A stretch of DNA of 55,595 nt from a bacterium (GTDB lineage Bacteria > Patescibacteriota > Saccharimonadia > CAILAD01 > BJGX01), in contig JAKOQC010000083.1 in NCBI GenBank assembly GCA_029778565.1, forward strand, positions 1-55,595. Direction: 5' to 3'. Position 1 is the first letter of the stretch; each line of letters starts with the position of its first letter. Below the pieces are notes generated by a model. The model searched no databases. It saw nothing but the letters and a program-made list of their open reading frames with translations, and was not told the DNA's origin. The position numbers were made by a program, and so were the translations under genes. Below are positions 18,767-54,670 of this stretch, piece after piece.

Positions 18767-18788
18767 GCCTCTTCAAAATTGAAGAGGC
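18767..18788 (-). terminator. Hairpin/terminator at the 3' end (minus strand) of array A
   Basis: GCCTCTTCA-AAAT-TGAAGAGGC, 9-bp perfect stem; minus-strand continuation TATTTTATT. Confidence 0.65.
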
Positions 18789-18829
18789 AAAGTATCTATC
18801 TGTGAAAAAGCGCATTTTCTGAACCAGAA

Positions 18830-19980
18830 CTTAGGATGCGCTACCAGAGACGAGCTTATATCCATATACTAACCACAACCGAAATCGGTATATACACCCA
18901 GAGCCGAGCAGATCAGACCAGACGCCAACTAAGCAGAGCGTAGACCAGATAGTGCTGGTGTCCTCACCGAAGTGCAATACTATAATACCAGACCCAAGGC
19001 CAGGAGAGCCCAAAAGCCATCAGCAAAGCAAACCCTACGTTTACATCACCCAGGCATAGCTTAGCTTATTGCTTCATTAGCTGAGGCAGGCGCGTCTCAT
19101 AGTACTCAACCTAAGCCAAGGCCAACTAAGAAAGTCCCTACAACAGTAAAGAACATAGTGGCAAAGCCAAGAATAATTCACCCCTAAGGAGGTTCGATAC
19201 AATACAGGAACCCAGGATAACTAGCCTAATAAATCCGTAAGATAGGGAAGCCTATCGAAGTCTAGATTGCCGAAGTAAAGCCCATTAGCCTCAAAACCCA
19301 AGATCGTCAGAAGACAACTTAATTAGCCAGACCGTAAGATTCCGTAGTGGAATTTATAGAAGCACAGCGAAACGGAACATGGCAGAGCTAATAACTCCGT
19401 AGACGAGCCTACAGCGCTCTACCTAAGCCCAACGCAGCCAAGGTTTTTCATACGTACCTAACGTTAACGAAAATAACCTTAAGACTTCATTACCCAAGTC
19501 AACAGAAGTGGAACTAAGCCAAGCTTATACCTCCTCAACCAAAAGGAACCTAGGTTACTAAAACAAAGCAAATTCTTCCACACCCAAAAGAACTCTACGC
19601 TAGCGGAACTGAGCTGATACTTCCACAGACAACTCTAACGAAGACTACCGAAAGACAGAATAACGTATAGATCCAGAGCTAAACCAAAGCCAACTCGCCA
19701 GAATCTACGCTACCCAGCCTTAAAAATCGATACCGGACTATGGCTTAGTGCAGCTAAACTTACCCTAGCTCAGTTTACGATAGCTTATCATTCCAGAGCC
19801 AACGGCAAGAAAAGAAACATTACGCAAACTGAGCCCATATTTCCACAGGCCAGCAAACAACACCTAAACATAGCCGAACGAATGATTTCCGGAGTCAAAC
19901 ACACGACAAACGAACTAAGGCCAGCTGATATTTATGTAGGTTAACGGAAATTGGACTAGGTTAGACTCCCTAAGCTCATC
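18830..19980. repeat. Noncoding degenerate repeat array A
   Basis: No credible ORF; A/C-rich + strand; recurring AGCYNATANNTCCRNAG-like units, e.g. 18853, 19386, 19520, 19611, 19782, 19831. Confidence 0.7.
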
Positions 19981-20001
19981 ATTGAGGAATTAGTTTTTTT
20001 A

Positions 20002-20084: not shown

Positions 20085-20121
20085 GTCTCATCCTGGGGCC
20101 AAACTGGCCCCAGGATGAGAC
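20085..20121. repeat. Perfect 17-bp hairpin with 3-nt loop, between array A and the helicase stop
   Basis: GTCTCATCCTGGGGCCA-AAC-TGGCCCCAGGATGAGAC. Confidence 0.95.
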
Positions 20122-20140: not shown

Positions 20141-22018
20141 TCAGCCCAAGAACTCGACAATCTCATCCTCGATCTCATCGAGGGTGCGGCCACTACGCCA
20201 GCTGGGCTTCAGCCAGTCGGGCAAGCCACCAGGCAAAAAGTTGCTATAGCTCTTAGACCAAAAGATGGTAACGCCACAGTCGGTAGCCGAGCGGATATTG
20301 CGGCCACGTGCCTGCAGGGCCTTGTTTACCTCGCGGTACTGCCACAGCCACCACGGCGCTTCATTGCGCTCGCGACCACGTCGCTGCTTTTTGGCCTTGC
20401 CAAAACGCTGCGTCTCAAACTGTGCCTGGGGGTCGCGCGGGTTGGGGTAGCCAGGTCGCAACAAGTGAATAACCGGGGCCATACCATCTGGCAGGTCCAA
20501 GCCCTCACCGTACTGCGCCATGGTACCCAACAACACATCACCCTTACCAGTCTTAAACAGATTAACTGCCTCGCGGGCATTTGTGTCTTCGCCATACGTT
20601 ACCACTTGCAGATCTTGCATTTCTGCCATCTCTACAAAGAGATTACGTTCGGCTTCGCTTACCACAATTACCAAACTCCGCAGCCCTTTGCCAACATGTG
20701 TTTTGCACATCTTAGCAATACGCTCGAGGGTAATTTCTGGCTCGTTAATATCTCGCTTGGCGGCGGCCAACTCTGGCGCGTCGCTGGCAAAATACAAACG
20801 AGTGTTATCTACCGGAAACAGATTACTCAGTGAGACAAATCGGCTGTTAATGCCCGACTCATACCCAAAGATATTGGCATCCCCAATGGTTGCCGAATAA
20901 GCCAGCGTAAACGGGCTGAGAATGCGCTTAATGAGCGGTGCTACATAGTAGTCGCGAATAACCAGCTTTTGGCGAACCTTCTCGTTGCCAACCAGCTCAT
21001 CTTCGCGATAGGCATAGGTAACGTACTTAAGAGCCGAATGGTCTTCGGTACTCTGTGCATACTCAAAGCTGCGCACATAACGATTCAGATCGAACGCAAT
21101 GGTCTGCAACTGCTTGAGGGTTTTGATGTCCTCAGCATTTGCCTTGGCCAGAGCTTTACGAATTGCTTTGGTAGCAGCTCGTTGCAACTTGCTGGCGTCA
21201 ATCTGATACAGCATATTCAACAGATCATCAATTTCAGACTCGGTAAGAATTTTGAGAGGATTATTACTGCGCTTACGCCCAGCAATAATACGATTCATTT
21301 TCTTAAGGAAATCATACAGCAAGCCGGCAGCTTCGTCTTCGCCTACCTGCTCGAGCAAGATAATTGAACGTTCGAGATGATAATCAGAAATGTCGTAGCT
21401 AAGAGCATTACGCACAATGTCTGGCAAACGATGAACTTCATCGAGTACCAACACACTAGGCGGCTCAAAACCGCGACTAAACATACTATTAAACAGGTAA
21501 AAACTCATGGTGCAAACTACAATTTTACTCTCGTTTATGGCCTTATACTTGGCCAAATAGTACGGACACGGTTCGGCATCTGGATCTTGCGTTTCACCAG
21601 TCTGCATATCTACGCGATGCGCGCAGTCGATACTCAGACACGGAATGTCATCGGCACTAAACTCTTCGTAATCAGGAAAATACAAGCACGGATATTCGTT
21701 GCGCCCATACACACGAGTAACATCAGGAAACATCGTTGCTACCTGATCTACCAGTGCTTTATTGGGCACCACGTACCACAAGCCCGAGTAGCGAGCTTTG
21801 GCGTGCGCCTGCTGCACAGTATAGCCAATGGCGGTTTTACCGCTCCCTACCGGAGCCTGCACCAGCAAACTTTCGGGATGTTGGCTGAGTTCTTCAAACA
21901 CAGCTAACTGATTCGGGTTGGGCGATCCACCAACAATATTACGAGGAAAATGCTTTTTGAGATTAGCCAGTTCGAGCACTTCTTTACGTGTTTTCAGTAC
22001 TACCGGGACTTCTTGCAT
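20141..22018 (-). CDS. DinG/XPD-like superfamily 2 helicase with putative Fe-S cluster cysteines
   Basis: Walker A APVGSGKTAIGY; DEVH box (VLVLDEVHRLPDIV); four Cys in YPCLYFPDYEEFSADDIPCLSIDCAHR...EPCPYY; C-terminal helicase motif LGTMAQYGEGLDLPDG; SD AAAGGAG. Confidence 0.85.
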   Translation of the reverse strand: MQEVPVVLKTRKEVLELANLKKHFPRNIVGGSPNPNQLAVFEELSQHPESLLVQAPVGSGKTAIGYTVQQAHAKARYSGLWYVVPNKALVDQVATMFPDVTRVYGRNEYPCLYFPDYEEFSADDIPCLSIDCAHRVDMQTGETQDPDAEPCPYYLAKYKAINESKIVVCTMSFYLFNSMFSRGFEPPSVLVLDEVHRLPDIVRNALSYDISDYHLERSIILLEQVGEDEAAGLLYDFLKKMNRIIAGRKRSNNPLKILTESEIDDLLNMLYQIDASKLQRAATKAIRKALAKANAEDIKTLKQLQTIAFDLNRYVRSFEYAQSTEDHSALKYVTYAYREDELVGNEKVRQKLVIRDYYVAPLIKRILSPFTLAYSATIGDANIFGYESGINSRFVSLSNLFPVDNTRLYFASDAPELAAAKRDINEPEITLERIAKMCKTHVGKGLRSLVIVVSEAERNLFVEMAEMQDLQVVTYGEDTNAREAVNLFKTGKGDVLLGTMAQYGEGLDLPDGMAPVIHLLRPGYPNPRDPQAQFETQRFGKAKKQRRGRERNEAPWWLWQYREVNKALQARGRNIRSATDCGVTIFWSKSYSNFLPGGLPDWLKPSWRSGRTLDEIEDEIVEFLG

Positions 22019-22059: not shown

Positions 22060-22930
22060 TATGAAAATTGTTCCGGAAACCAGCGGACAGTAGCGGAACA
22101 GAACTTAACTCAGTACACTATATCTAAACACATTATTAATCACCGCATGAGAGCATAACAGGTGTCACCTAATAGTTCAGAAAGTTAGAACACCAGAGAC
22201 TAAACTAAGGTAGCTAAAGCCATTAACCCATACCAGAAACTACAGTATCGAAACAGAGCGAGGGTCATTACTCCAAACCAAATCCGAGAAGAGCCGACAC
22301 AGCCCGAACAAAGACAAGAGAATATTCAGGAGTTAACCAGAGCGGATCGAACCCGAAAGTAGTCGGCCTTAGGTGATGACTACGAAGCGAAAAGTAGCTG
22401 AACCTACCAGACCCTGGGCTACGCTATACAGTCCAAACCGGAATCTATCAGAGACGAGACAGGCATAACGAACGCCACCGAAACGAATTGAACTCCGAAG
22501 AGCATGCGCAGTAAAAACAAGCCGAACCGAGGGTAACAGACGCAACACTATGTGATCAGAACAACAGCGTTGGTCACCAAAAATTAACTGAACCAAACGA
22601 ATGTCTCTCAAGACGAGCTAAGCCTAAGTAAAATTAAATAAACTAAGCCTATTATCCTCGAGTATACGCCGGCGAACAGAATTGGACCGGAATGTAGCGC
22701 AATTAACCATAGGCCAGTAGTCACTACCGGAGCATAAATGAACCTAAGGGAACGTAGCGTAGCGTAGCTTATTTGGTACCCAAAGCCCAGTGTAGATCGC
22801 GGAAGATTAGCCTACCACACCTTAGTACTGTATAGCAGAAAGCGAGCTGAATTGCCCCGAGCTCAGCCGAACAGACCATACTGTAGCATGGGTCAGCCGA
22901 AATTTGTGTATTTCTTAACTAAATTGTTAA
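22060..22930. repeat. Noncoding degenerate repeat array B (5' of helicase)
   Basis: Same composition and motif family (CCAGAG, CCGAAG, CCGGAG, AACTAAGCCTATTATCC); no credible ORF. Confidence 0.65.
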
Positions 22931-22955
22931 CGATCGAGACTCACTATTTGCGAGC

Positions 22956-22989
22956 CTCGTTTTGGGCTGATAATTCAGCGCAAAACGAG
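22956..22989. repeat. Compound hairpin between arrays B and C
   Basis: CTCGTTTTG-g-GCTGA-taat-TCAGC-g-CAAAACGAG: 9-bp stem, 1x1 mismatch, 5-bp stem, 4-nt loop. Confidence 0.9.
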
Positions 22990-23005
22990 ACAAACAAAAT
23001 AAAAT

Positions 23006-23040
23006 TTTGGGGAGGTTGCCCTCCCCTTCTGTATTTTCTT
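23006..23040. terminator. Putative bidirectional intrinsic terminator separating arrays B and C
   Basis: GGGGAGG-TTGC-CCTCCCC with T-rich flanks on both strands. Confidence 0.75.
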
Positions 23041-23049
23041 TAATCACCA

Positions 23050-24110
23050 CACGCCAATGTGCCTTAACCAAGCTTTGGTCTAGGGTTGAGTTCCGAAGCC
23101 AACCGAAAGAAAAAGAAGTTAGCCGCAGCTAAGGTTATGTCTCACTTCCGTAGCCTAAGCGACAAGAACCGACGATACGTAATATATCCGCAGTCAACCG
23201 CAGCTCAACTGAAACTACCCTAGGTAAGCCTAGTTTTTCCGCACGCAACCGGAGCAGACCATAGCCTGTCCTACCTAAGCCTATACGTCCGAACGCCACA
23301 TGAGACAAGGTAAATGTAGCCAAGCTCATTCCTCTTTACCGAAGCGAGGGCAACCACAACCTGGGACAACTAAGTTGTCCATAGAGGAAATTAATAGAAC
23401 GAAAAGAAAAGAAGGATATTCAATCTTTACTAGACCCTATACTTATCCAAGAAATTCCAGAGACAACCGGACGAGAATTCACCCTAACGTAGTAAACCAC
23501 ATAGTTTTCCCCAGCGAAATACAGTCTAGCTAAGAACAACAAGCCATAGAGTAGCAACTCCACGCCATAATCAAGCGTAGCGAAGCAGAGCTCAACAAAG
23601 CGTATGTTTACGAACATGACCGTACCTCAATACGCGAAAGCATATTATTTACGAACACGAGAATACAATACCGAAGTACACTACAACAAAGCCTAGCTAA
23701 TTAATCCAGAGCACAAAGCAGGGTACCGCACACTAAACTAGTGGAGCGAAGCTAATACGTCTCTCTAGATCACGACACGAGAAAAAAGCACAGGTCAGTA
23801 GTCCTAAGCTGACGCTACACGAGAATGCCGAAGTGGAATAAAACTGAAGTCAGCCAACACTATGTATCCGAAACAGGCCATAATACAACTCACACAACGC
23901 TAGTATTCGTGAGCGTACGCGAAGCAACACAGACTCAGCAAAACTAAGATGATGCATCCGCAGATCAGGCTAATAAAACTGAATATAGCGCGGGCCAGCT
24001 CATTATCCAATAGCGGAGAGCCAACGGAATACAAGCCAAGATAGTGAACCTTATAGTTACAAACTTCACGACACGCGAAATTATGGCAAAATACCACAAA
24101 ATTCCGTAGC
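23050..24110. repeat. Noncoding degenerate repeat array C (most regular block, 23.08-23.46 kb)
   Basis: TTCCGAAGCCAACCG, TTCCGTAG, ATCCGCAGTCAACCG, TTCCGCACGCAACCG, GTCCGAACGCC, TACCGAAG at roughly 40-55-bp intervals. Confidence 0.7.
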
Positions 24111-24155
24111 GGTTGTACGGTTTAATAAGAAAATACTTATTATATCGGGTCTTAC

Positions 24156-24195
24156 ACCCATTACAAGGTGCATATATCGGTGGGATTTACATCCC
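24156..24195 (-). repeat. Leader-like element of array C (partner of 20002-20041)
   Basis: ACCCATTACAAGGTGCATATATCGGTGGGATTTACATCCC. Confidence 0.5.
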
Positions 24196-24277: not shown

Positions 24278-24315
24278 GCTAAAAAGTTACCTAATCAATG
24301 TAACAACATGGTTTT

Positions 24316-24339
24316 GGCGGGGCCCCGAAGGGCCCCGCC
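24316..24339 (-). repeat. 10-bp GC hairpin; on the minus strand capped by a cUUCGg tetraloop
   Basis: GGCGGGGCCC-CGAA-GGGCCCCGCC (+); minus-strand loop TTCG closed by C-G. Confidence 0.9.
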
Positions 24340-24354
24340 GCCACCATCAGCCGA

Positions 24355-25107
24355 TCAGGCCGAGGCCCCGTTGCCGTTGCTGCCGACGCCGGCACCCACG
24401 AGCTCGCCCTCCTTGGGCTCGCTCGCCTTGGCCGCCTTGCCACTGGGCTTGGCGTTGGACGGGTCGTCGGCCGGATCCTCGTAGACGAGGGTCGAAGACC
24501 AGCTGTTGCCCTTCTCCTTGCGGAGGATGGTGATCTGGGCCGAGAACATGCCGTACTCGCCGCCCTTCTGCGGACGCCAGTCGCCGTAGCCGTACGCCGT
24601 ACCGGCGTAGTGCAGCCATTCCTGCAGCTTCTCGGGGCTGCAGGTGCTGTCGTCGTGGACGGTGCCCTCGAACTCGAAGCCCCACTCGTCGATGCGGGGC
24701 CGCGCGATGACAACGGCCTCGCCACCGTTGGGGTTGACGCCCTTGTCGACCTGCAGTTGCGGGGCGCTGCACGGGTCGAAGCGGAAGAAGCGGTCCGCCG
24801 GCATGTGGACGTCGATGAGGCTGAAGGCCAGGGTGGCCTTCTTGGCATCGGTCATCTTGGTCATGCCGGAGTACTGCACGCGCTTGCCCGAGTGGACGAG
24901 GTTGGCGGTGATGTAGCGACTGGGCAGGCCCAGGCCGCCAAACTCGTTCTCGAAGTAGTCGAGGATCTTCTGGCTCTTCTGCTCGTTGGTGAGGCGCGCG
25001 CCCTTGCTCTGCTTCACCGCGCCCTCGAGCTGCGCGAGCAGCTCGGGAGTTGCCGGGTTGAGCAGGATGGGGCTGGTGCCCACGATCTTCACTCGAAAGT
25101 CATACAT
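24355..25107 (-). CDS. GC-rich phage-like protein of unknown function, probably horizontally acquired
   Basis: Intact 250-aa ORF with SD GAGGAGGGACCGTAATG; much higher GC than its surroundings; AGTAYGYGDWRPQKGGEYGMF resembles a motif I associate with phage-encoded hypothetical proteins. Confidence 0.75.
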   Translation of the reverse strand: MYDFRVKIVGTSPILLNPATPELLAQLEGAVKQSKGARLTNEQKSQKILDYFENEFGGLGLPSRYITANLVHSGKRVQYSGMTKMTDAKKATLAFSLIDVHMPADRFFRFDPCSAPQLQVDKGVNPNGGEAVVIARPRIDEWGFEFEGTVHDDSTCSPEKLQEWLHYAGTAYGYGDWRPQKGGEYGMFSAQITILRKEKGNSWSSTLVYEDPADDPSNAKPSGKAAKASEPKEGELVGAGVGSNGNGASA

Positions 25108-25176
25108 TACGGTCCCTCCTCAGGGAAGTTTGTCACAGCGGGGTTGCTGAGACATTGGTTGGGGTTGTCTGGGTAC

Positions 25177-25331: not shown

Positions 25332-25946
25332 TTAAAGCTCACAAACAAGGCTATGGTGCCAAAGATAGGTATAGTCTGGCAATTCTTGCCAATATCGGCA
25401 CAGCAGTGGCTGGCGTTCCTCTACCCGCATAACCACTTGATTCTGATTAGGCACATGAAGATTATTTAGTACCGCCCAGTACTCGGGGCCAACCCTCAAA
25501 ACTCTACTCCAACCATTATCGCCTAGCTCAAAAGGCTGACTAATAGCAAGGCAGATATCGTGCAGCTCGAGCAGAGTATTTTCTGATAGCAACTCTGTCT
25601 CGCATGATAGTAACTCTTCGGTTACTTTTGCTAGTGGGCGAGTCTGCCATGCAGTGTTATAAAAAACTGCTGATTTGGCGCCTGCAACAAGAAATTCCTG
25701 TACAGCAACACTCACATCAATGGCAAGACGGCCATTGTGCCAATACCCACAGTGTTCACACACATACGGTGTAAGTTTTCTGTATGGCTTATACTTGGCA
25801 TTCGCCTTATCGGCTGCCACCTGAGCACCAGCCCTGCTCATAAAGATCTGCTTGTGCAGAACTTCTTGATGAGTTTTGGCCGCAAGAGCCGAACATACAA
25901 CTCTGCCATCGAGTAACAGACTGTCTATGGTTGTCATCTGTCTCAC
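25332..25946 (-). CDS. Hypothetical protein with putative Cys/His metal-binding motif
   Basis: 204-aa ORF; YVCEHCGYWHNGR; followed by an AAGCC...GGCTT hairpin near 25316. Confidence 0.6.
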   Translation of the reverse strand: MRQMTTIDSLLLDGRVVCSALAAKTHQEVLHKQIFMSRAGAQVAADKANAKYKPYRKLTPYVCEHCGYWHNGRLAIDVSVAVQEFLVAGAKSAVFYNTAWQTRPLAKVTEELLSCETELLSENTLLELHDICLAISQPFELGDNGWSRVLRVGPEYWAVLNNLHVPNQNQVVMRVEERQPLLCRYWQELPDYTYLWHHSLVCEL

Positions 25947-28608: not shown

Positions 28609-28971
28609 ATGAAAGCCAAGATTCATCCTGAATATGTCGATACAAAGGTAACCTGCTTGGGTTGTGGTACTACTTTTGAAAGTAAAAGCACAATGCCAGA
28701 AATTACTGTAGATATTTGCTCGCAGTGTCATCCTTTTTATACCGGCAAGCAAAAACTTGTCGATACCGCCGGTCGTGTCGACCGTTTTAAGGCTGCTCGC
28801 GAAAAAGCCGAAGCGAAAAAAGAAGCCTTGGTTAAAAAAGGCCAAAAAGCACTTTCTAAGGCCGAAGCTGCTGCTATGCTCGAAGCTGATGCTCAAATTA
28901 CCTCAGAAAACACTACCGAAGTAGCAAAATCAGATGAGCCGAGCAAAAAACCGTCAACTGACGACAAATAA
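28609..28971 (+). CDS. rpmE: 50S ribosomal protein L31 with C-terminal Lys/Ala-rich extension
   Basis: [60 protein letters not shown]. Confidence 0.95.
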
Positions 28972-28986
28972 TTTTTCGACAACACC

Positions 28987-29016
28987 AAATACTGCTTTAT
29001 AATAGAAGCAGTATTT
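28987..29016 (+). promoter_or_regulatory. 11-bp inverted repeat whose loop carries TATAAT (candidate prfA promoter / rpmE terminator overlap)
   Basis: AAATACTGCTT-TATAATAG-AAGCAGTATTT; prfA starts at 29030. Confidence 0.6.
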
Positions 29017-29029
29017 TGGTATAAACCCT

Positions 29030-30091
29030 ATGATTGATGATACTACTATAAAACAGTTACAAGCCGATCTGGCCGCTATTGAGGACGAACTGGCCGACCC
29101 TGCTGTCTATGCCAGCCCACGCAGCGCCAAATTGGTAAATACTCAGCGCGAGTTAAAAGATAAACTCGAACTGTTTTTTGAGTTACAGAAAACGGAAGAT
29201 CAGCTAGCTCAAGCCAAAGAAATGCAGAACGATCCAGATATGAAAGAGTTGGCCCTGGCTGAGATTCCCGAGCTCGAGCGCAAACTCGAACAGCTAAGCG
29301 AGCAAGCCAAGGTAGCACTCTTACCAAAAGATCCAAATGATAGTAAAGACGCAATTATCGAAATTAGAGCTGGCGCTGGCGGTGACGAGTCGAGCTTGTT
29401 TGCCGGTGATTTACTGCGTATGTATTTACGCTTTTGCGAGCGACACGAGCTGAAGGCTCAGCTTCTTTCTGAAAGTCCAAATGACGTTGGCGGTTATAAA
29501 GAGGTAATCGTCGAAATATCTGGCAGTGATGCCTATGGCATATTAAAGTACGAATCTGGTGTACATAGAGTACAGCGCATCCCGGCTACCGAAAGTGCTG
29601 GACGTGTCCATACCAGCACGGCTACAGTGGCGGTATTACCCGAAGCCGAAGAAAACGAACTCGAAATTAATCCTAACGATTTGCGTATAGATGTGTTTCG
29701 AAGTGGTGGGCACGGCGGACAAAGTGTTAACACTACAGACAGTGCGGTACGCATTACCCATATTCCTACCGGCACCGTCGTTACCTGCCAAGATGAAAAG
29801 TCACAGCTAAAGAATAAATTAAAAGCTATGGGCGTACTACGTTCTCGCTTGTTGGCTGCCAAACAAGAAGAAGAAGCTAAACAACTTGGCGCCGCCCGTA
29901 AAAGTCAAATTGGTACCGGTGATCGTTCTGAAAAAATTCGAACATACAATTTTCCGCAAGACCGCATTACCGACCATCGAATTGGTTACACCACACATGG
30001 TATTGGCAAGGTGCTCGACGGCGAACTAGACGGAATACTTACCGCCCTACGCGAAGCCGAAGTTAGTAAAGCTCTAGAAAATCAACAATGA
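29030..30091 (+). CDS. prfA: Peptide chain release factor 1
   Basis: [41 protein letters not shown]. Confidence 0.97.
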
Positions 30092-50897: not shown

Positions 50898-51815
50898 CTA
50901 AAAGTATGAGGGTAAGACTTTGGCAAAATTCTCTATAGTTTCAAAAAGCCAACTAATTAGATTGTCTTCCTTACCTTCGTCTTCAAAATCACCATTTTTA
51001 GTAATTATTATTCTAGAGGCCTTCTTGTTTGGTAGCTCTTGCCAATCTAGTTTACCAATACTGTTTTCAATGGAAGTTTTCTTAGAATAAAGTTTGTTAA
51101 ACAAATCCTTATTATCACGTATATATAACTCAATGCCTACTTTATTTTCTCTAGTATTAATTGTTGCAGTTACATTAGCCTGTGAACTTCCAATGGCAAT
51201 ATTGTACCAGTGACGTGGTTTTGGTTTCTGCCAACTCTTTACATATACCGAGTTAGTTTCACCGTACTCTTTTAATTTAGCCCAAAATTCCTGTTGTTTT
51301 AATTTTAGGTCTGTGATCTTATTATTACCTGCTCTTTGCTTGATTGTTTTAGCCCACTCATTGGGTTCGGCAACAATATTAAACCTTGGGGCAGGCAGTG
51401 AGTCCCCAATTTTTAGCGCCTCAACCTCTATTAAGAAGAAATTTGCACCCTCTGTTGTATTTTCATTAAGCCAATTAATAGCCTGTTCGTGTTCTTCTCT
51501 CGCTTGGGCTACTATCCATATTACTATTTCGGCATCCAGACCGGAGGCATAAGTAATTATCTTACCTAAATGATCATGGTTGGTTACTTCTAGTTGATTT
51601 TCAATTATTATTTTTTTACCATTGTCATCTTCTGCTAATATATCGACATGAAATTTCCCAACGCCCACTTCAGTTTCAGAATTTAAAATACTAACCCCGA
51701 TAGACTCACTTAATAGTCCTAAGTTATTTTCTTCGGCCAACCAGTTAGTAAAATCTAGGGCCTCGTGTTTCCAAATTTCCCTCAAAGGCACTTTTTTGAT
51801 CTTGCCCAGTTTCAT
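50898..51815 (-). CDS. DUF4268 domain-containing protein (N-terminal nuclease-like region)
   Basis: FHVDILAEDDNGKKIIIENQLEVTNHDHLGKIITYASGLDAEIVIWIVAQAREEHEQAINWLNENT...; C-terminal KPRHWYNIAIGSSQANVTATINTRENKVGIELYI. Confidence 0.85.
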   Translation of the reverse strand: MKLGKIKKVPLREIWKHEALDFTNWLAEENNLGLLSESIGVSILNSETEVGVGKFHVDILAEDDNGKKIIIENQLEVTNHDHLGKIITYASGLDAEIVIWIVAQAREEHEQAINWLNENTTEGANFFLIEVEALKIGDSLPAPRFNIVAEPNEWAKTIKQRAGNNKITDLKLKQQEFWAKLKEYGETNSVYVKSWQKPKPRHWYNIAIGSSQANVTATINTRENKVGIELYIRDNKDLFNKLYSKKTSIENSIGKLDWQELPNKKASRIIITKNGDFEDEGKEDNLISWLFETIENFAKVLPSYF

Positions 51816-51940
51816 ACATCAAACCTTTATATTATATGGACATTATAGCACGTGCGTAAACCGACATTAGTCAGAGTAGAGCAACAACGGGGAAACATGA
51901 AAACAAACAGAGCTGTCACCCGCCACACAGCCCTGATTAA

Positions 51941-53011
51941 CTAATTATTACATATTACATAATGTAGATATTCAGTCGTCGTGTCAGCCGCATAAGCCCT
52001 ATTCTCAGATCTGTCTGCTTTAAAACGATTATATTCTTTTGTAAAATACCCATATTTACCACGTAAACTCATAATTTCTTTAATATCATCCAAGGACATT
52101 AAGCCTTCATTGTTATAGCTTAAAAATATATACCTTGATTTTGCTTTCAATATCAAATCCCTAAAAGCGTTAAAGACTTGTCTACGTGAACAATAAAGAG
52201 ATTTTTGTTTACTATAGTCTCGTAACCCTGTTTTCCCATATATATTAGGGTTGTCATATTTAGCAATTGTTTCTAAAAGATGATAGTTTGTCGCATATTG
52301 ACGGTGATTATAGGGTGGATCTAAGTATAGAATGTCGCCATTGATTTTACCAATGATACTATTAATGTCCGTATTAAATACTACATGGTCTTGGTCATTA
52401 ATAATTAATTCAGCTGGCTTTAAGATTAAATCGTTTTGAGCAGTTTTTTTTATTTTTTTCAGGTATGCGCCGTAAACAGAAGCAGTATTCGCATATTTAT
52501 CAATTGATTCAATCAGACTTGTAACTAAGAAGTAATATTCATCATCATTAATTAAATCTTTTATCTTCCACTCTTCTATTTTTTGACGTATAGCATCGCA
52601 GCGTTTCCCATTTTCATCTGTAAAATAGAGCCTCGGTTGATCATTATCCTTTGTACCACCAAGACAATAATTTTCGTAAATAAATCCTTCTATACCTTCT
52701 ATATTAGACAAATAGTCGCAAACAAAATCTTTACGATTTTTTGTTTCTATATTACCTAGGCCCGAAATTTCCGCAACTAGACTATTAAAATTTAATACCT
52801 TGTGGTTACCTATATAATGCCTATTTAAAACATAACTGTAGTATTGAATATCGTTAGCAATTATCTTATAACCCCTTTTCTTAAAATGAGTACCGACTAT
52901 ACCCGTACCTGCAAATAAATCACAAAAACTATCACAGTCATTGTCCACCACCTCAGTAATTGACGCCTCCAAAAACTCCAATAATGACAATTTACTCCCA
53001 ATATAATTCAT
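51941..53011 (-). CDS. D12-class N6-adenine DNA methyltransferase
   Basis: MNYIGSKLSLLEFL...FCDLFAGTGIVGTHFKKRGYKIIANDIQYYS...DILYLDPPYNHRQYATNYHLLETI. Confidence 0.92.
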   Translation of the reverse strand: MNYIGSKLSLLEFLEASITEVVDNDCDSFCDLFAGTGIVGTHFKKRGYKIIANDIQYYSYVLNRHYIGNHKVLNFNSLVAEISGLGNIETKNRKDFVCDYLSNIEGIEGFIYENYCLGGTKDNDQPRLYFTDENGKRCDAIRQKIEEWKIKDLINDDEYYFLVTSLIESIDKYANTASVYGAYLKKIKKTAQNDLILKPAELIINDQDHVVFNTDINSIIGKINGDILYLDPPYNHRQYATNYHLLETIAKYDNPNIYGKTGLRDYSKQKSLYCSRRQVFNAFRDLILKAKSRYIFLSYNNEGLMSLDDIKEIMSLRGKYGYFTKEYNRFKADRSENRAYAADTTTEYLHYVICNN

Positions 53012-53075
53012 AGATTAATTTTAACATACGTTACTATATAACTTAAAAAAAACTCTAGTATGGTAATATTTACAT

Positions 53076-53807
53076 ATGTTAAATAATGAACAAATTGGTA
53101 TATCCGTTGAAATTTCAATATCTGATGTTTTTAATATAAATCTATCTGACAAATATCGATGCCGTGGGGTGCCTACTATTGTCAACACAGTCAAACCAAT
53201 TATTAATAATATTTTTGTTGAAAATAATATACCTAAACCAACAAAACATGTTGCCGAGAATCAAAACTCTATTGATTTTATCTTACAAAATAATAAAACT
53301 CTGTCAGTAAAAACTAACAAGCAAAAACTAGGCAAAGCAGCACCACAAAAAATTGGCCAAGCATCATCGAATACATGGTTTACAATTTTAGCAGAAAGGT
53401 TAGGTATAGCATATATTCCAACAGCATATCCAGAAAAAGTGAAATTATTTAAAATAATTGCGTTAACAAGAATTGATGAATTACTTTCTATTTATTGGGA
53501 ATACATGTTTGATTGTGATTTTTTAATACACTTCTTTAATATAGTAGACAAAATTGATAACCCAACATTTGAACCAAAATATATAGTTATAAAAAAAACC
53601 TGTAGCCCGATCTGGGATCCCACGAAAATAACTTTCACAAAAGCAACTGTTTCCGAATGGAATGAGAGTAATACTGTGAAATACGAATATGAAGGGGTAA
53701 CGATAGGTGAGTTTCAGGTTCATAATAACAGGGATAATTTTAAATTCCGTTTCAATATGATGGGTATTTATAAGCTAATGTCTGAAAATCGATTTAATTT
53801 TTCTTGA
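53076..53807 (+). CDS. Putative type II restriction endonuclease (PD-(D/E)xK-like)
   Basis: NSIDFILQNNKTLSVKTNKQKLGK; located between two DNA methyltransferases. Confidence 0.65.
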   Translation: MLNNEQIGISVEISISDVFNINLSDKYRCRGVPTIVNTVKPIINNIFVENNIPKPTKHVAENQNSIDFILQNNKTLSVKTNKQKLGKAAPQKIGQASSNTWFTILAERLGIAYIPTAYPEKVKLFKIIALTRIDELLSIYWEYMFDCDFLIHFFNIVDKIDNPTFEPKYIVIKKTCSPIWDPTKITFTKATVSEWNESNTVKYEYEGVTIGEFQVHNNRDNFKFRFNMMGIYKLMSENRFNFS

Positions 53808-54579
53808 AAATCAGTATGTATTCATGTTTAAAAATATAGTAATCACCTAAAAGTGCCCGATATCTCCAAATACCTTCTTTGTTTTGCTTAGCACGATTAC
53901 CGGCCATGTTTTTTACAATTACACTTTTAAGAGTCAGGCCTAGTTTTTGAGCAGCATTCATACAATAAAAACCCAATGGAATCCATTCTCCATTAGTATA
54001 TTTATCACCGATCACGATTGCTAAATACCGTTTTTCTTCTAGTATATCGATTGTGTTTTTTAAGATGGTAGAAAATTTTTCAATGAACTCATGCAGAGTT
54101 GGTGCATTTGATAAATCACCAGCTAATTTACTAAATCTGATAATATCTGTGTATGGTGGATGCAATATTGCTAGTTGTATGTATTGTTTATTGTGTCTTC
54201 TTAAAATTTTTTTAACAATACTATATGTACTTGACTGTACACTATCACCAGCAATAACTTCTACAAAATTATTGTGTGGTTCAACCTTTTTTCGTACTTC
54301 ATCAACAAGTTCCTTTTGAATATCAACACCAATAAAATTTCTTTTTAAATTTTCGGCCTCATAGGCACTAGTACCGCTACCTAAAAAAGGATCAAACACT
54401 ATGTCGTCCTGCTTACTATATCTCAAGATTAACTGACGGGGTACCTGCGGTACAAAATTACCATGATAGTAACCATCATGCTTCCCGGTGTTATCTCTTT
54501 CAGAAATGAGCCAAAGACTATCTGTCCAAATTTCCGATTTTTTCCACTCACCCATATTTATATCATTATAATAAGACAT
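53794..54579 (-). CDS. DNA methyltransferase (N4/N6-type) with HPPY catalytic motif; ORF open to 54636
   Basis: FDPFLGSGTSAYEAENLKRNFIGVDI; LAILHPPYTDIIRFSKLAGDLSN. Confidence 0.82.
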   Translation of the reverse strand: MSYYNDINMGEWKKSEIWTDSLWLISERDNTGKHDGYYHGNFVPQVPRQLILRYSKQDDIVFDPFLGSGTSAYEAENLKRNFIGVDIQKELVDEVRKKVEPHNNFVEVIAGDSVQSSTYSIVKKILRRHNKQYIQLAILHPPYTDIIRFSKLAGDLSNAPTLHEFIEKFSTILKNTIDILEEKRYLAIVIGDKYTNGEWIPLGFYCMNAAQKLGLTLKSVIVKNMAGNRAKQNKEGIWRYRALLGDYYIFKHEYILIFKKN

Positions 54580-54670
54580 AAAAGTATTATATTCGCTTTT
54601 TATTCGTATTTCAATAATGTATTTTAAAATGATCAAAAAAAGACGGCTGTCACACCGTCTAAAACTTTCA

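What the first reader, a model, noticed from the sequence alone, without database searches (positions are those of the whole stretch)
24310..25120. GC-rich island encoding an intact phage-like protein of unknown function
The ORF 24355-25107 and its codon choice are visibly far more GC-rich than its flanks, with abrupt transitions, yet it keeps its own SD and promoter. Saccharibacteria live on high-GC Actinobacteria, so acquisition from a host or host phage is plausible. A RAMP/Cas7-like fold is only speculation from the N-terminal IVGTSPILLNP pattern.
Basis: partly seen in the sequence, partly recalled or inferred. Interest (0 to 1): 0.7.

Follow-up and report, generated by a model that had tools for sequence, protein, structure and literature searches.

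The report
VIPR RNA-guided locus in Patescibacteria
The odd GC-rich gene encodes a Vipr protein, the core of a recently described RNA-guided DNA-binding system thought to be older than CRISPR, and it sits next to about sixty tandem guide units and a CRISPR-type-IV-like helicase on the chromosome of a bacterium from a group with few known defences against viruses.

Summary
The GC-rich ORF at 24355-25107(-) is real: GC3 is 0.92, against 0.38 +/- 0.07 for 50 other genes of the window. It encodes a Vipr protein, shown by homology to PDB 36pp (SUSP1 Vipr), to phrog_4652, and over its full length to a Felixounavirus Vipr (hhalign E 4e-12).

The finding missed the main point. Three flanking non-coding tracts have a strict 5-nt period (18.82-19.99, 22.07-22.90, 23.05-24.13 kb). 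On the vipr strand the motif is NN-GBT, matching the GGY/NN guide code of VIPR systems. About 62 units of ~50 nt are marked off by GGA-NN-TAT. A type-IV-A-like DinG helicase (20141-22018) lies between the tracts.

In all nine other Patescibacteria genomes where both sides of vipr can be seen, vipr and this helicase are neighbours on one strand, mostly with pentamer arrays. This is a chromosomal VIPR locus, most likely antiviral.

Acquisition from Actinobacteria is not supported: the closest relatives are Patescibacteria, and their vipr genes are mostly GC3-rich too. Targets remain unproven; one guide matches a phage capsid gene 20/20, but chance matches are common at this depth.

The parts
24355..25107 (-). 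vipr gene: 250-aa Vipr (RAMP homologue) with C-terminal G-rich loop GYGDWRPQKGGEYGMF; GC3 0.92
   Evidence: phrog_4652 E 1.5e-12; PDB 36pp SUSP1 Vipr E 4e-4; hhalign to a Felixounavirus Vipr E 4.1e-12, 170 columns; invariant residues
25237..25265 (-). promoter-like TTGACA-17-TAGAAT upstream of vipr
   Evidence: consensus scan, 11 of 12
25113..25120 (-). Shine-Dalgarno AGGAGGGA for vipr
   Evidence: sequence
24316..24339 (-). GC-rich hairpin directly downstream of the vipr stop codon
24248..24277 (-). terminator-like hairpin downstream of vipr
24139..24166 (-). promoter-like TTGTAA-16-TATAAT just upstream of array A3
   Evidence: 10 of 12
23045..24130 (-). vrRNA array A3: about 23 units of NN-GBT pentamers, boundaries GGA-NN-TAT
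   Evidence: 5-nt autocorrelation, HMM parse, unit spacing
22905..23045 (-). inter-array leader with hairpins (23009-23026 and 22947-22998)
22070..22905 (-). vrRNA array A2: about 16 units
20141..22018 (-). candidate vap: DinG/CasDinG-like SF2 helicase, 625 aa
   Evidence: Pfam Helicase_C_2 and DEAD; PADLOC typeIV_DinG PDLC01439 E 2.7e-48; adjacent to vipr in all Patescibacteria genomes where both sides can be seen
20085..20121 (-). strong terminator-like hairpin (17 bp) after the helicase
18815..19990 (-). vrRNA array A1: about 23-26 units; includes guide U5 (19343-19398)
18767..18788 (-). terminator-like hairpin after array A1

Best explanation
The ORF is the effector gene of a chromosomal VIPR (Viral Interference Programmable Repeat) locus. 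Order on the minus strand: vipr, array A3, array A2, DinG-like helicase, array A1. The arrays are transcribed with the genes and yield about 60 guide RNAs (vrRNAs), each of about 9-11 pentamers NN-GBT. Vipr subunits coat a vrRNA through their G-rich loop, with one subunit per pentamer presumed. The variable NN pairs then read double-stranded DNA with one skipped base between pairs. The helicase is loaded at the bound site and unwinds or clears it, like CasDinG in type IV-A CRISPR. The result is repression or interference against invading viral DNA. Shown here: Vipr homology, the 5-nt arrays and their likely strand, and the conserved vipr-helicase pair. Inferred from the SUSP1 work: vrRNA processing, RNP formation and the 1-nt-skip DNA reading. 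Inferred by analogy: the helicase step and the antiviral role.
For: Vipr homology: and profile scores. The lag-5 autocorrelation signal (600-base windows) is confined to these three tracts in the 55.6 kb. NN positions are near-random (information 0.01-0.03 bit) while the T position is fixed at 84% (1.15 bits). Unit spacing has a median of 50 nt and CV 0.24, n = 62. Six phage vipr loci, used as positive controls, show the same adjacent 5-nt tracts; the Gordonia one is plain GGY/NN. The same order vipr - array - helicase - array on one strand, with canonical GGY/NN, is seen in same-class genomes G032 and G638. Among 60 relatives the helicase occurs only in G032, beside its vipr. G504, G513 and G284 were picked by helicase alone, and all three proved to have an adjacent vipr. 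The experimental basis for the mechanism is PMC13142463. A3 has a promoter-like site on the minus strand, and A1 ends in a terminator-like hairpin on that strand.
Against: No expression data. The triplet is looser than GGY (G 50%, middle base degenerate), and there is no per-unit tail or hairpin, unlike SUSP1 or G032. No target was established: of five guides scanned in IMG/VR, three gave nothing, one gave an out-of-phase single hit, and one gave a 20/20 hit to a capsid gene of phages related to proteobacterial ones. A reversed-order control also gave one hit. The single-sequence AlphaFold model failed (pLDDT 36), so the RAMP fold rests on sequence homology only.
Confidence: 0.87

Rival explanations
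1. The GC-rich ORF is a recent import from an actinobacterial host or its phage, a single 'moron' gene of no relation to its surroundings.
For: GC3 0.92 against 0.38 in the genome; rpsB GC3 is 0.29, so high expression by host codon preference does not explain it.
Against: Closest relatives are Patescibacteria, not Actinobacteria phages (actinobacterial genomes themselves were not searched). The gene stands in a conserved vipr-array-helicase cluster. Vipr exceeds its neighbours in GC3 in most relatives as well: G262 0.98, G245 0.89, G425 0.85, G638 0.85, G032 0.78.
Confidence: 0.06
2. The locus came by horizontal transfer from a GC-richer patescibacterium or its mobile element; the GC excess is donor memory and the system is a recent arrival or phage-derived weapon, not a settled host defence. 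(Compatible with the VIPR identification; rivals only the settled-defence reading.)
For: Helicase GC3 0.53 is also the second highest in the window; vipr is absent from G001 (same genus) and from the 11 family members tested; VIPR is mostly viral or proviral (PMC13142463).
Against: The arrays are near genome GC (0.42-0.46). Vipr alone is extreme even in GC-richer genomes, so donor memory is not the whole answer. No phage genes were found around it.
Confidence: 0.45
3. The 5-nt tracts are ordinary low-complexity or decayed tandem repeats unrelated to Vipr.
For: The motif is degenerate; no two units are alike.
Against: The NN positions are near-uniform while T is fixed, which neutral decay of a tandem repeat would not give. 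Tracts flank vipr and helicase in the same order in relatives, and adjacent tracts occur at all six phage controls.
Confidence: 0.03
4. The arrays are read on the plus strand (A-V-C/NN) and the system regulates host genes rather than fighting viruses.
For: On the plus strand AGC also resembles RGY.
Against: In relatives the GGY/NN consensus lies on the vipr strand. The promoter-like site of A3 and the terminator-like hairpins of A1 and the helicase are on the minus strand. Sixty unrelated guides look like immunity rather than regulation (inference).
Confidence: 0.05

Closest known systems
VIPR system of Escherichia phage SUSP1 (type II VIPR, PMC13142463; PDB 36pp)
   Same: Vipr homologue over full length; vrRNA of pentamers with two free bases; arrays flank vipr; accessory gene nearby.
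   Different: SUSP1: phage, four ~100-nt vrRNAs with a structured 3' tail, GGY fixed, small DNA-binding vap1. Here: chromosome, about 62 short units, no per-unit tail seen, GBT motif, helicase as accessory.
VIPR types with enzyme vaps (types III-V, PMC13142463)
   Same: The preprint says types III-V carry predicted nucleases or helicases; III and V are the antiviral ones with nucleases. A helicase-only locus would by elimination be nearest to type IV.
   Different: Type assignment not testable: the supplement with types and vap families was not readable here.
Type IV-A CRISPR-Cas with CasDinG
   Same: RAMP-based RNA-guided complex plus a DinG helicase and no nuclease seen; helicase best matches PADLOC typeIV_DinG (E 2.7e-48).
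   Different: No CRISPR repeats, no Csf proteins or Cas6 seen; guide code is non-contiguous; helicase has no match in the plasmid collection.
Patescibacteria VIPR loci found here (G032, G638, G200, G245, G262, G425, G504, G513, G284)
   Same: Adjacent vipr and DinG-like helicase on one strand, with pentamer arrays in most.
   Different: G032 has a sequence-variable hairpin after nearly every unit and GGY/NN; G425 has two vipr genes in tandem.

Membership tests
VIPR | Vipr protein (RAMP homologue with G-loop) | tested here: met
   by sequence only, fold not confirmed
VIPR | Guide RNA region of alternating GGY (or related)/NN pentamers next to vipr | tested here: met
   motif is GBT/NN, within 'a related consensus' of the preprint
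VIPR | Accessory vap gene acting on DNA | tested here: met
   DinG-like helicase always paired with vipr in Patescibacteria where both sides are visible; that it works with Vipr is inferred
VIPR | vrRNA expressed and bound by Vipr | not testable with these tools
   Needs RNA sequencing and pull-down
VIPR | Target recognition by NN pairs with a 1-nt skip | tested here: inconclusive
   Guide U5: exact 18/18 in six phage contigs, 20/20 in four, skip bases on codon third positions; but the control and another guide each gave one chance-like hit
VIPR | Structured 3' tail on each vrRNA | tested here: not met
   No per-unit hairpin in the window arrays; described for SUSP1-like systems, and the preprint's main text does not make it a requirement of all seven types
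CRISPR type IV-A | CRISPR array with repeats, Csf1-3 and Cas6-like proteins | tested here: not met
   No CRISPR-like repeat families in the tracts; apart from the helicase no locus gene tested matched a Cas model
CRISPR type IV-A | DinG helicase | tested here: met
   PDLC01439 E 2.7e-48; below NCBIfam cut-offs for DinG equivalogs

The most novel reading that the evidence does not exclude
Patescibacteria carry a distinct chromosomal VIPR subtype: Vipr plus a type-IV-like DinG helicase, with dozens of compact, tail-less guides. It would act as a nuclease-free antiviral memory in bacteria that mostly lack CRISPR, and would be a natural intermediate between VIPR and type IV CRISPR. Guides would be swapped or gained over time without Cas1.
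Probability: 0.4. Interest if true: 0.88.

Novelty: new variant of a known kind. Interest (0 to 1): 0.75.

Why it matters
VIPR was described only in 2026 and mostly from phages. A chromosomal locus with about 60 guides and a CasDinG-like helicase, recurring across Patescibacteria, suggests how these very small bacteria, which rarely encode CRISPR-Cas (PMC6509639), may resist viruses. It also links VIPR to type IV CRISPR through a similar helicase. The arrays give a directly testable set of guides, and the recurring GC3 excess of vipr is unexplained.

Tried and rejected
Rfam scan of the locus: nothing credible, no hammerhead ribozymes. Vipr in viral contigs by peptide patterns: none. Genome contigs gave no answer three times, so no named relatives. 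Plus-strand reading of the arrays (first parse) was dropped once relatives showed GGY/NN on the vipr strand. Other guides did not match the U5 capsid phages above shuffled controls. Guide U1's exact hit lies in a small ORF (looks Hsp20-like by eye) with skip bases at second codon positions, so it is taken as chance. The weak G165 match (E 6e-4) was not counted as a Vipr. The VIPR supplement (types, figures S17-S22) could not be read.

Full report
OBSERVATION. ORF 24355-25107 on the minus strand is intact (250 aa), has a Shine-Dalgarno AGGAGGGA and a good promoter match, and is extremely GC-rich at third positions: 0.92, against 0.377 +/- 0.068 for 50 other genes of the window. GC windows show the step at both edges. 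The contig is chromosomal (rpsB, MreB, RF-1, PrmC, ParB and others).

WHAT THE PROTEIN IS. It matches phrog_4652 (E 1.5e-12) and, in the PDB, one credible entry: 36pp, 'SUSP1 Vipr protein' (E 4e-4). A profile of six patescibacterial homologues aligns over 170 columns with a Felixounavirus Vipr (hhalign probability 97.6, E 4.1e-12). The same profile scores six phage proteins with E from 2e-21 to 6e-14. The conserved core is RPxxxxW ... AGxxxGxGDxRPxxxGxFGxF, which looks like the RAMP G-loop (inference). Vipr is the effector of VIPR systems, a 2026 preprint (PMC13142463): a RAMP homologue that the authors hold to be more ancient than CRISPR RAMPs, with guide RNAs made of alternating GGY/NN pentamers. 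The NN pairs read double-stranded DNA with one skipped base; seven types exist, some with helicase or nuclease accessory genes.

THE ARRAYS. Autocorrelation at lags 5 and 10 stands out in three non-coding tracts (18.82-19.99, 22.07-22.90, 23.05-24.13 kb), and the 25 highest-scoring windows all fall there. A five-state cyclic model gives two free positions (information 0.01 and 0.03 bit) and a triplet whose last base is T in 84%. On the minus strand, the strand of vipr, it reads NN-G(50%)-B-T. Every ~50 nt (median 50, CV 0.24, 62 intervals) the T is replaced, typically as GGA-NN-TAT, which marks units of about 9-11 pentamers. GGANN[TAC]AT occurs 13 times against 2 expected in mononucleotide shuffles. 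I see about 62 units in all; the count depends on how degenerate boundaries are called.

STRAND. In relatives the consensus on the vipr strand is GGY/NN: G032 G.51 G.59 T.58/C.25; G638 G.59 G.55 T.54/C.33; G504 G.45 G.52 T.50. The window's GBT is the degenerate form of this. A3 is preceded on the minus strand by TTGTAA-16-TATAAT; A1 and the helicase are followed by terminator-like hairpins on the minus strand. My first parse used the plus strand and was dropped.

THE HELICASE. 20141-22018(-) is a DEAD/Helicase_C_2 protein; in PADLOC its best match is typeIV_DinG PDLC01439 (E 2.7e-48). Among 60 relatives it occurs only in G032, whose vipr lies 1.3 kb away. Among 381 phylum genomes strong homologues (E < 1e-39) occur in seven others: G200, G245, G262, G284, G425, G504, G513. 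Four of these already had a vipr on the same contig; the other three (G284, G504, G513) were searched afterwards and all three have one beside the helicase, on the same strand. G638, found by the Vipr profile in the class (3 of 343 genomes counting G000), also has both. G361's contig ends just after vipr, so its neighbour cannot be seen. In G262 the helicase precedes vipr; elsewhere it follows. Pentamer tracts flank the genes in most of these; the motif is weak or not GGY-like in G200, G262 and G513, and none was seen in G361. In G032 nearly every unit is followed by a hairpin whose sequence varies while the pairing is kept; the window's units lack it.

CONTROLS. Six phage vipr loci all show strong adjacent 5-nt tracts; that of Gordonia phage UmaThurman is textbook GGY/NN. 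The rest of the window does not show the period.

ORIGIN OF THE GC ISLAND. BLASTP of the protein against the set: G638 1e-26, G504 3e-23, G245 2e-21, G032 4e-18, with the best phage (Felixounavirus) at 6e-10 and a Gordonia phage at 3e-6. A tree puts all 12 patescibacterial Viprs on one side of a branch, but support is weak (78/90) and end branches are long. Vipr GC3 exceeds its neighbours in most relatives: 0.98 vs ~0.6 in G262, 0.89 vs ~0.65 in G245, 0.85 vs ~0.54 in G425, 0.85 vs ~0.6 in G638, 0.78 vs ~0.52 in G032; G513 is the exception. An actinobacterial origin is therefore not needed, though actinobacterial genomes themselves were not searched. Why vipr keeps a GC3 excess is unexplained: rpsB in this window has GC3 0.29, so it is not the codon choice of highly expressed host genes.

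TARGETS. Five guides were scanned as NNxNN patterns (18 fixed bases) in IMG/VR. Three gave nothing. U1 gave one hit with skip bases at second codon positions. U5 (19343-19398) gave six contigs, all at one homologous site in a protease-major capsid fusion gene, with skip bases exactly on codon third positions; four of the six match all ten pairs of the unit (20/20), and the match ends at the unit's boundaries. Against this: a reversed-order control pattern also hit once, the six contigs are homologous and so count as one event, and the nearest cultured relatives infect Rhodobacter, an unlikely shared virus. No other guide hits these contigs above shuffled controls. I regard U5 as a lead, not a target.

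MECHANISM. Shown: a Vipr homologue, arrays, likely strand, conserved pairing with the helicase. Inferred from SUSP1 experiments: RNP formation, 1-nt-skip DNA recognition. Inferred by analogy with type IV-A CRISPR, where CasDinG is a 5'-3' helicase essential for function and interference is nuclease-independent (PMC10450177, PMC11519345 abstracts): the helicase acts at the bound site. Antiviral function is the most likely use of ~60 unrelated guides on a chromosome, but it is not shown.

NOVELTY. The kind is known (VIPR). The subtype as measured - chromosomal, helicase-paired, about 62 compact units without per-unit tail, GBT motif - differs from every locus described in detail in the preprint's main text. 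It may be covered in the supplement, which I could not read (a helicase type exists; by elimination type IV). I therefore rate it a new variant, with the caveat that it may prove a plain member.

Noticed in passing
window 50898-54636: Low-GC (about 30%) island with two DNA methyltransferases (51941-53011 D12-class, 53794-54636), a type II restriction enzyme-like gene (53076-53807) and a PADLOC PDC-S11 candidate (50898-51815): a restriction-modification / defence island 26 kb from the VIPR locus.
   Followed up: partly
L011 10340-11340 and 13260-14350 (G032): VIPR arrays in which nearly every ~11-pentamer GGY/NN unit is followed by a hairpin whose sequence changes from unit to unit while pairing is kept; looks like a processing signal or tail under covariation.
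   Followed up: partly
L014 (G425), vipr ORFs at 28701-29159 and 29410-29835 of contig C13: Two different vipr genes in tandem upstream of one helicase.
   Followed up: no
L042 2730-3045 (Gordonia phage UmaThurman): Long uninterrupted GGY/NN tract of about 300 nt right after a vipr gene annotated as hypothetical protein gp39.
   Followed up: partly
vipr genes of G262, G245, G425, G638, G032 and the window: vipr third-position GC is far above neighbouring genes in most Patescibacteria; cause unknown.
   Followed up: partly
L019-L024 (IMG/VR), guide U5 at window 19343-19398: Guide U5 matches a phage capsid gene at 20 of 20 coded bases with skip bases on wobble positions in four contigs; chance not excluded.
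   Followed up: partly
window 25332-25946(-): 204-aa ORF just upstream of vipr with no match in Pfam, NCBIfam or PADLOC.
   Followed up: no
G000: The genome bin is 2.25 Mb in 633 contigs, more than twice most relatives (0.4-1.2 Mb): possibly a mixed bin despite 4% reported contamination.
   Followed up: no
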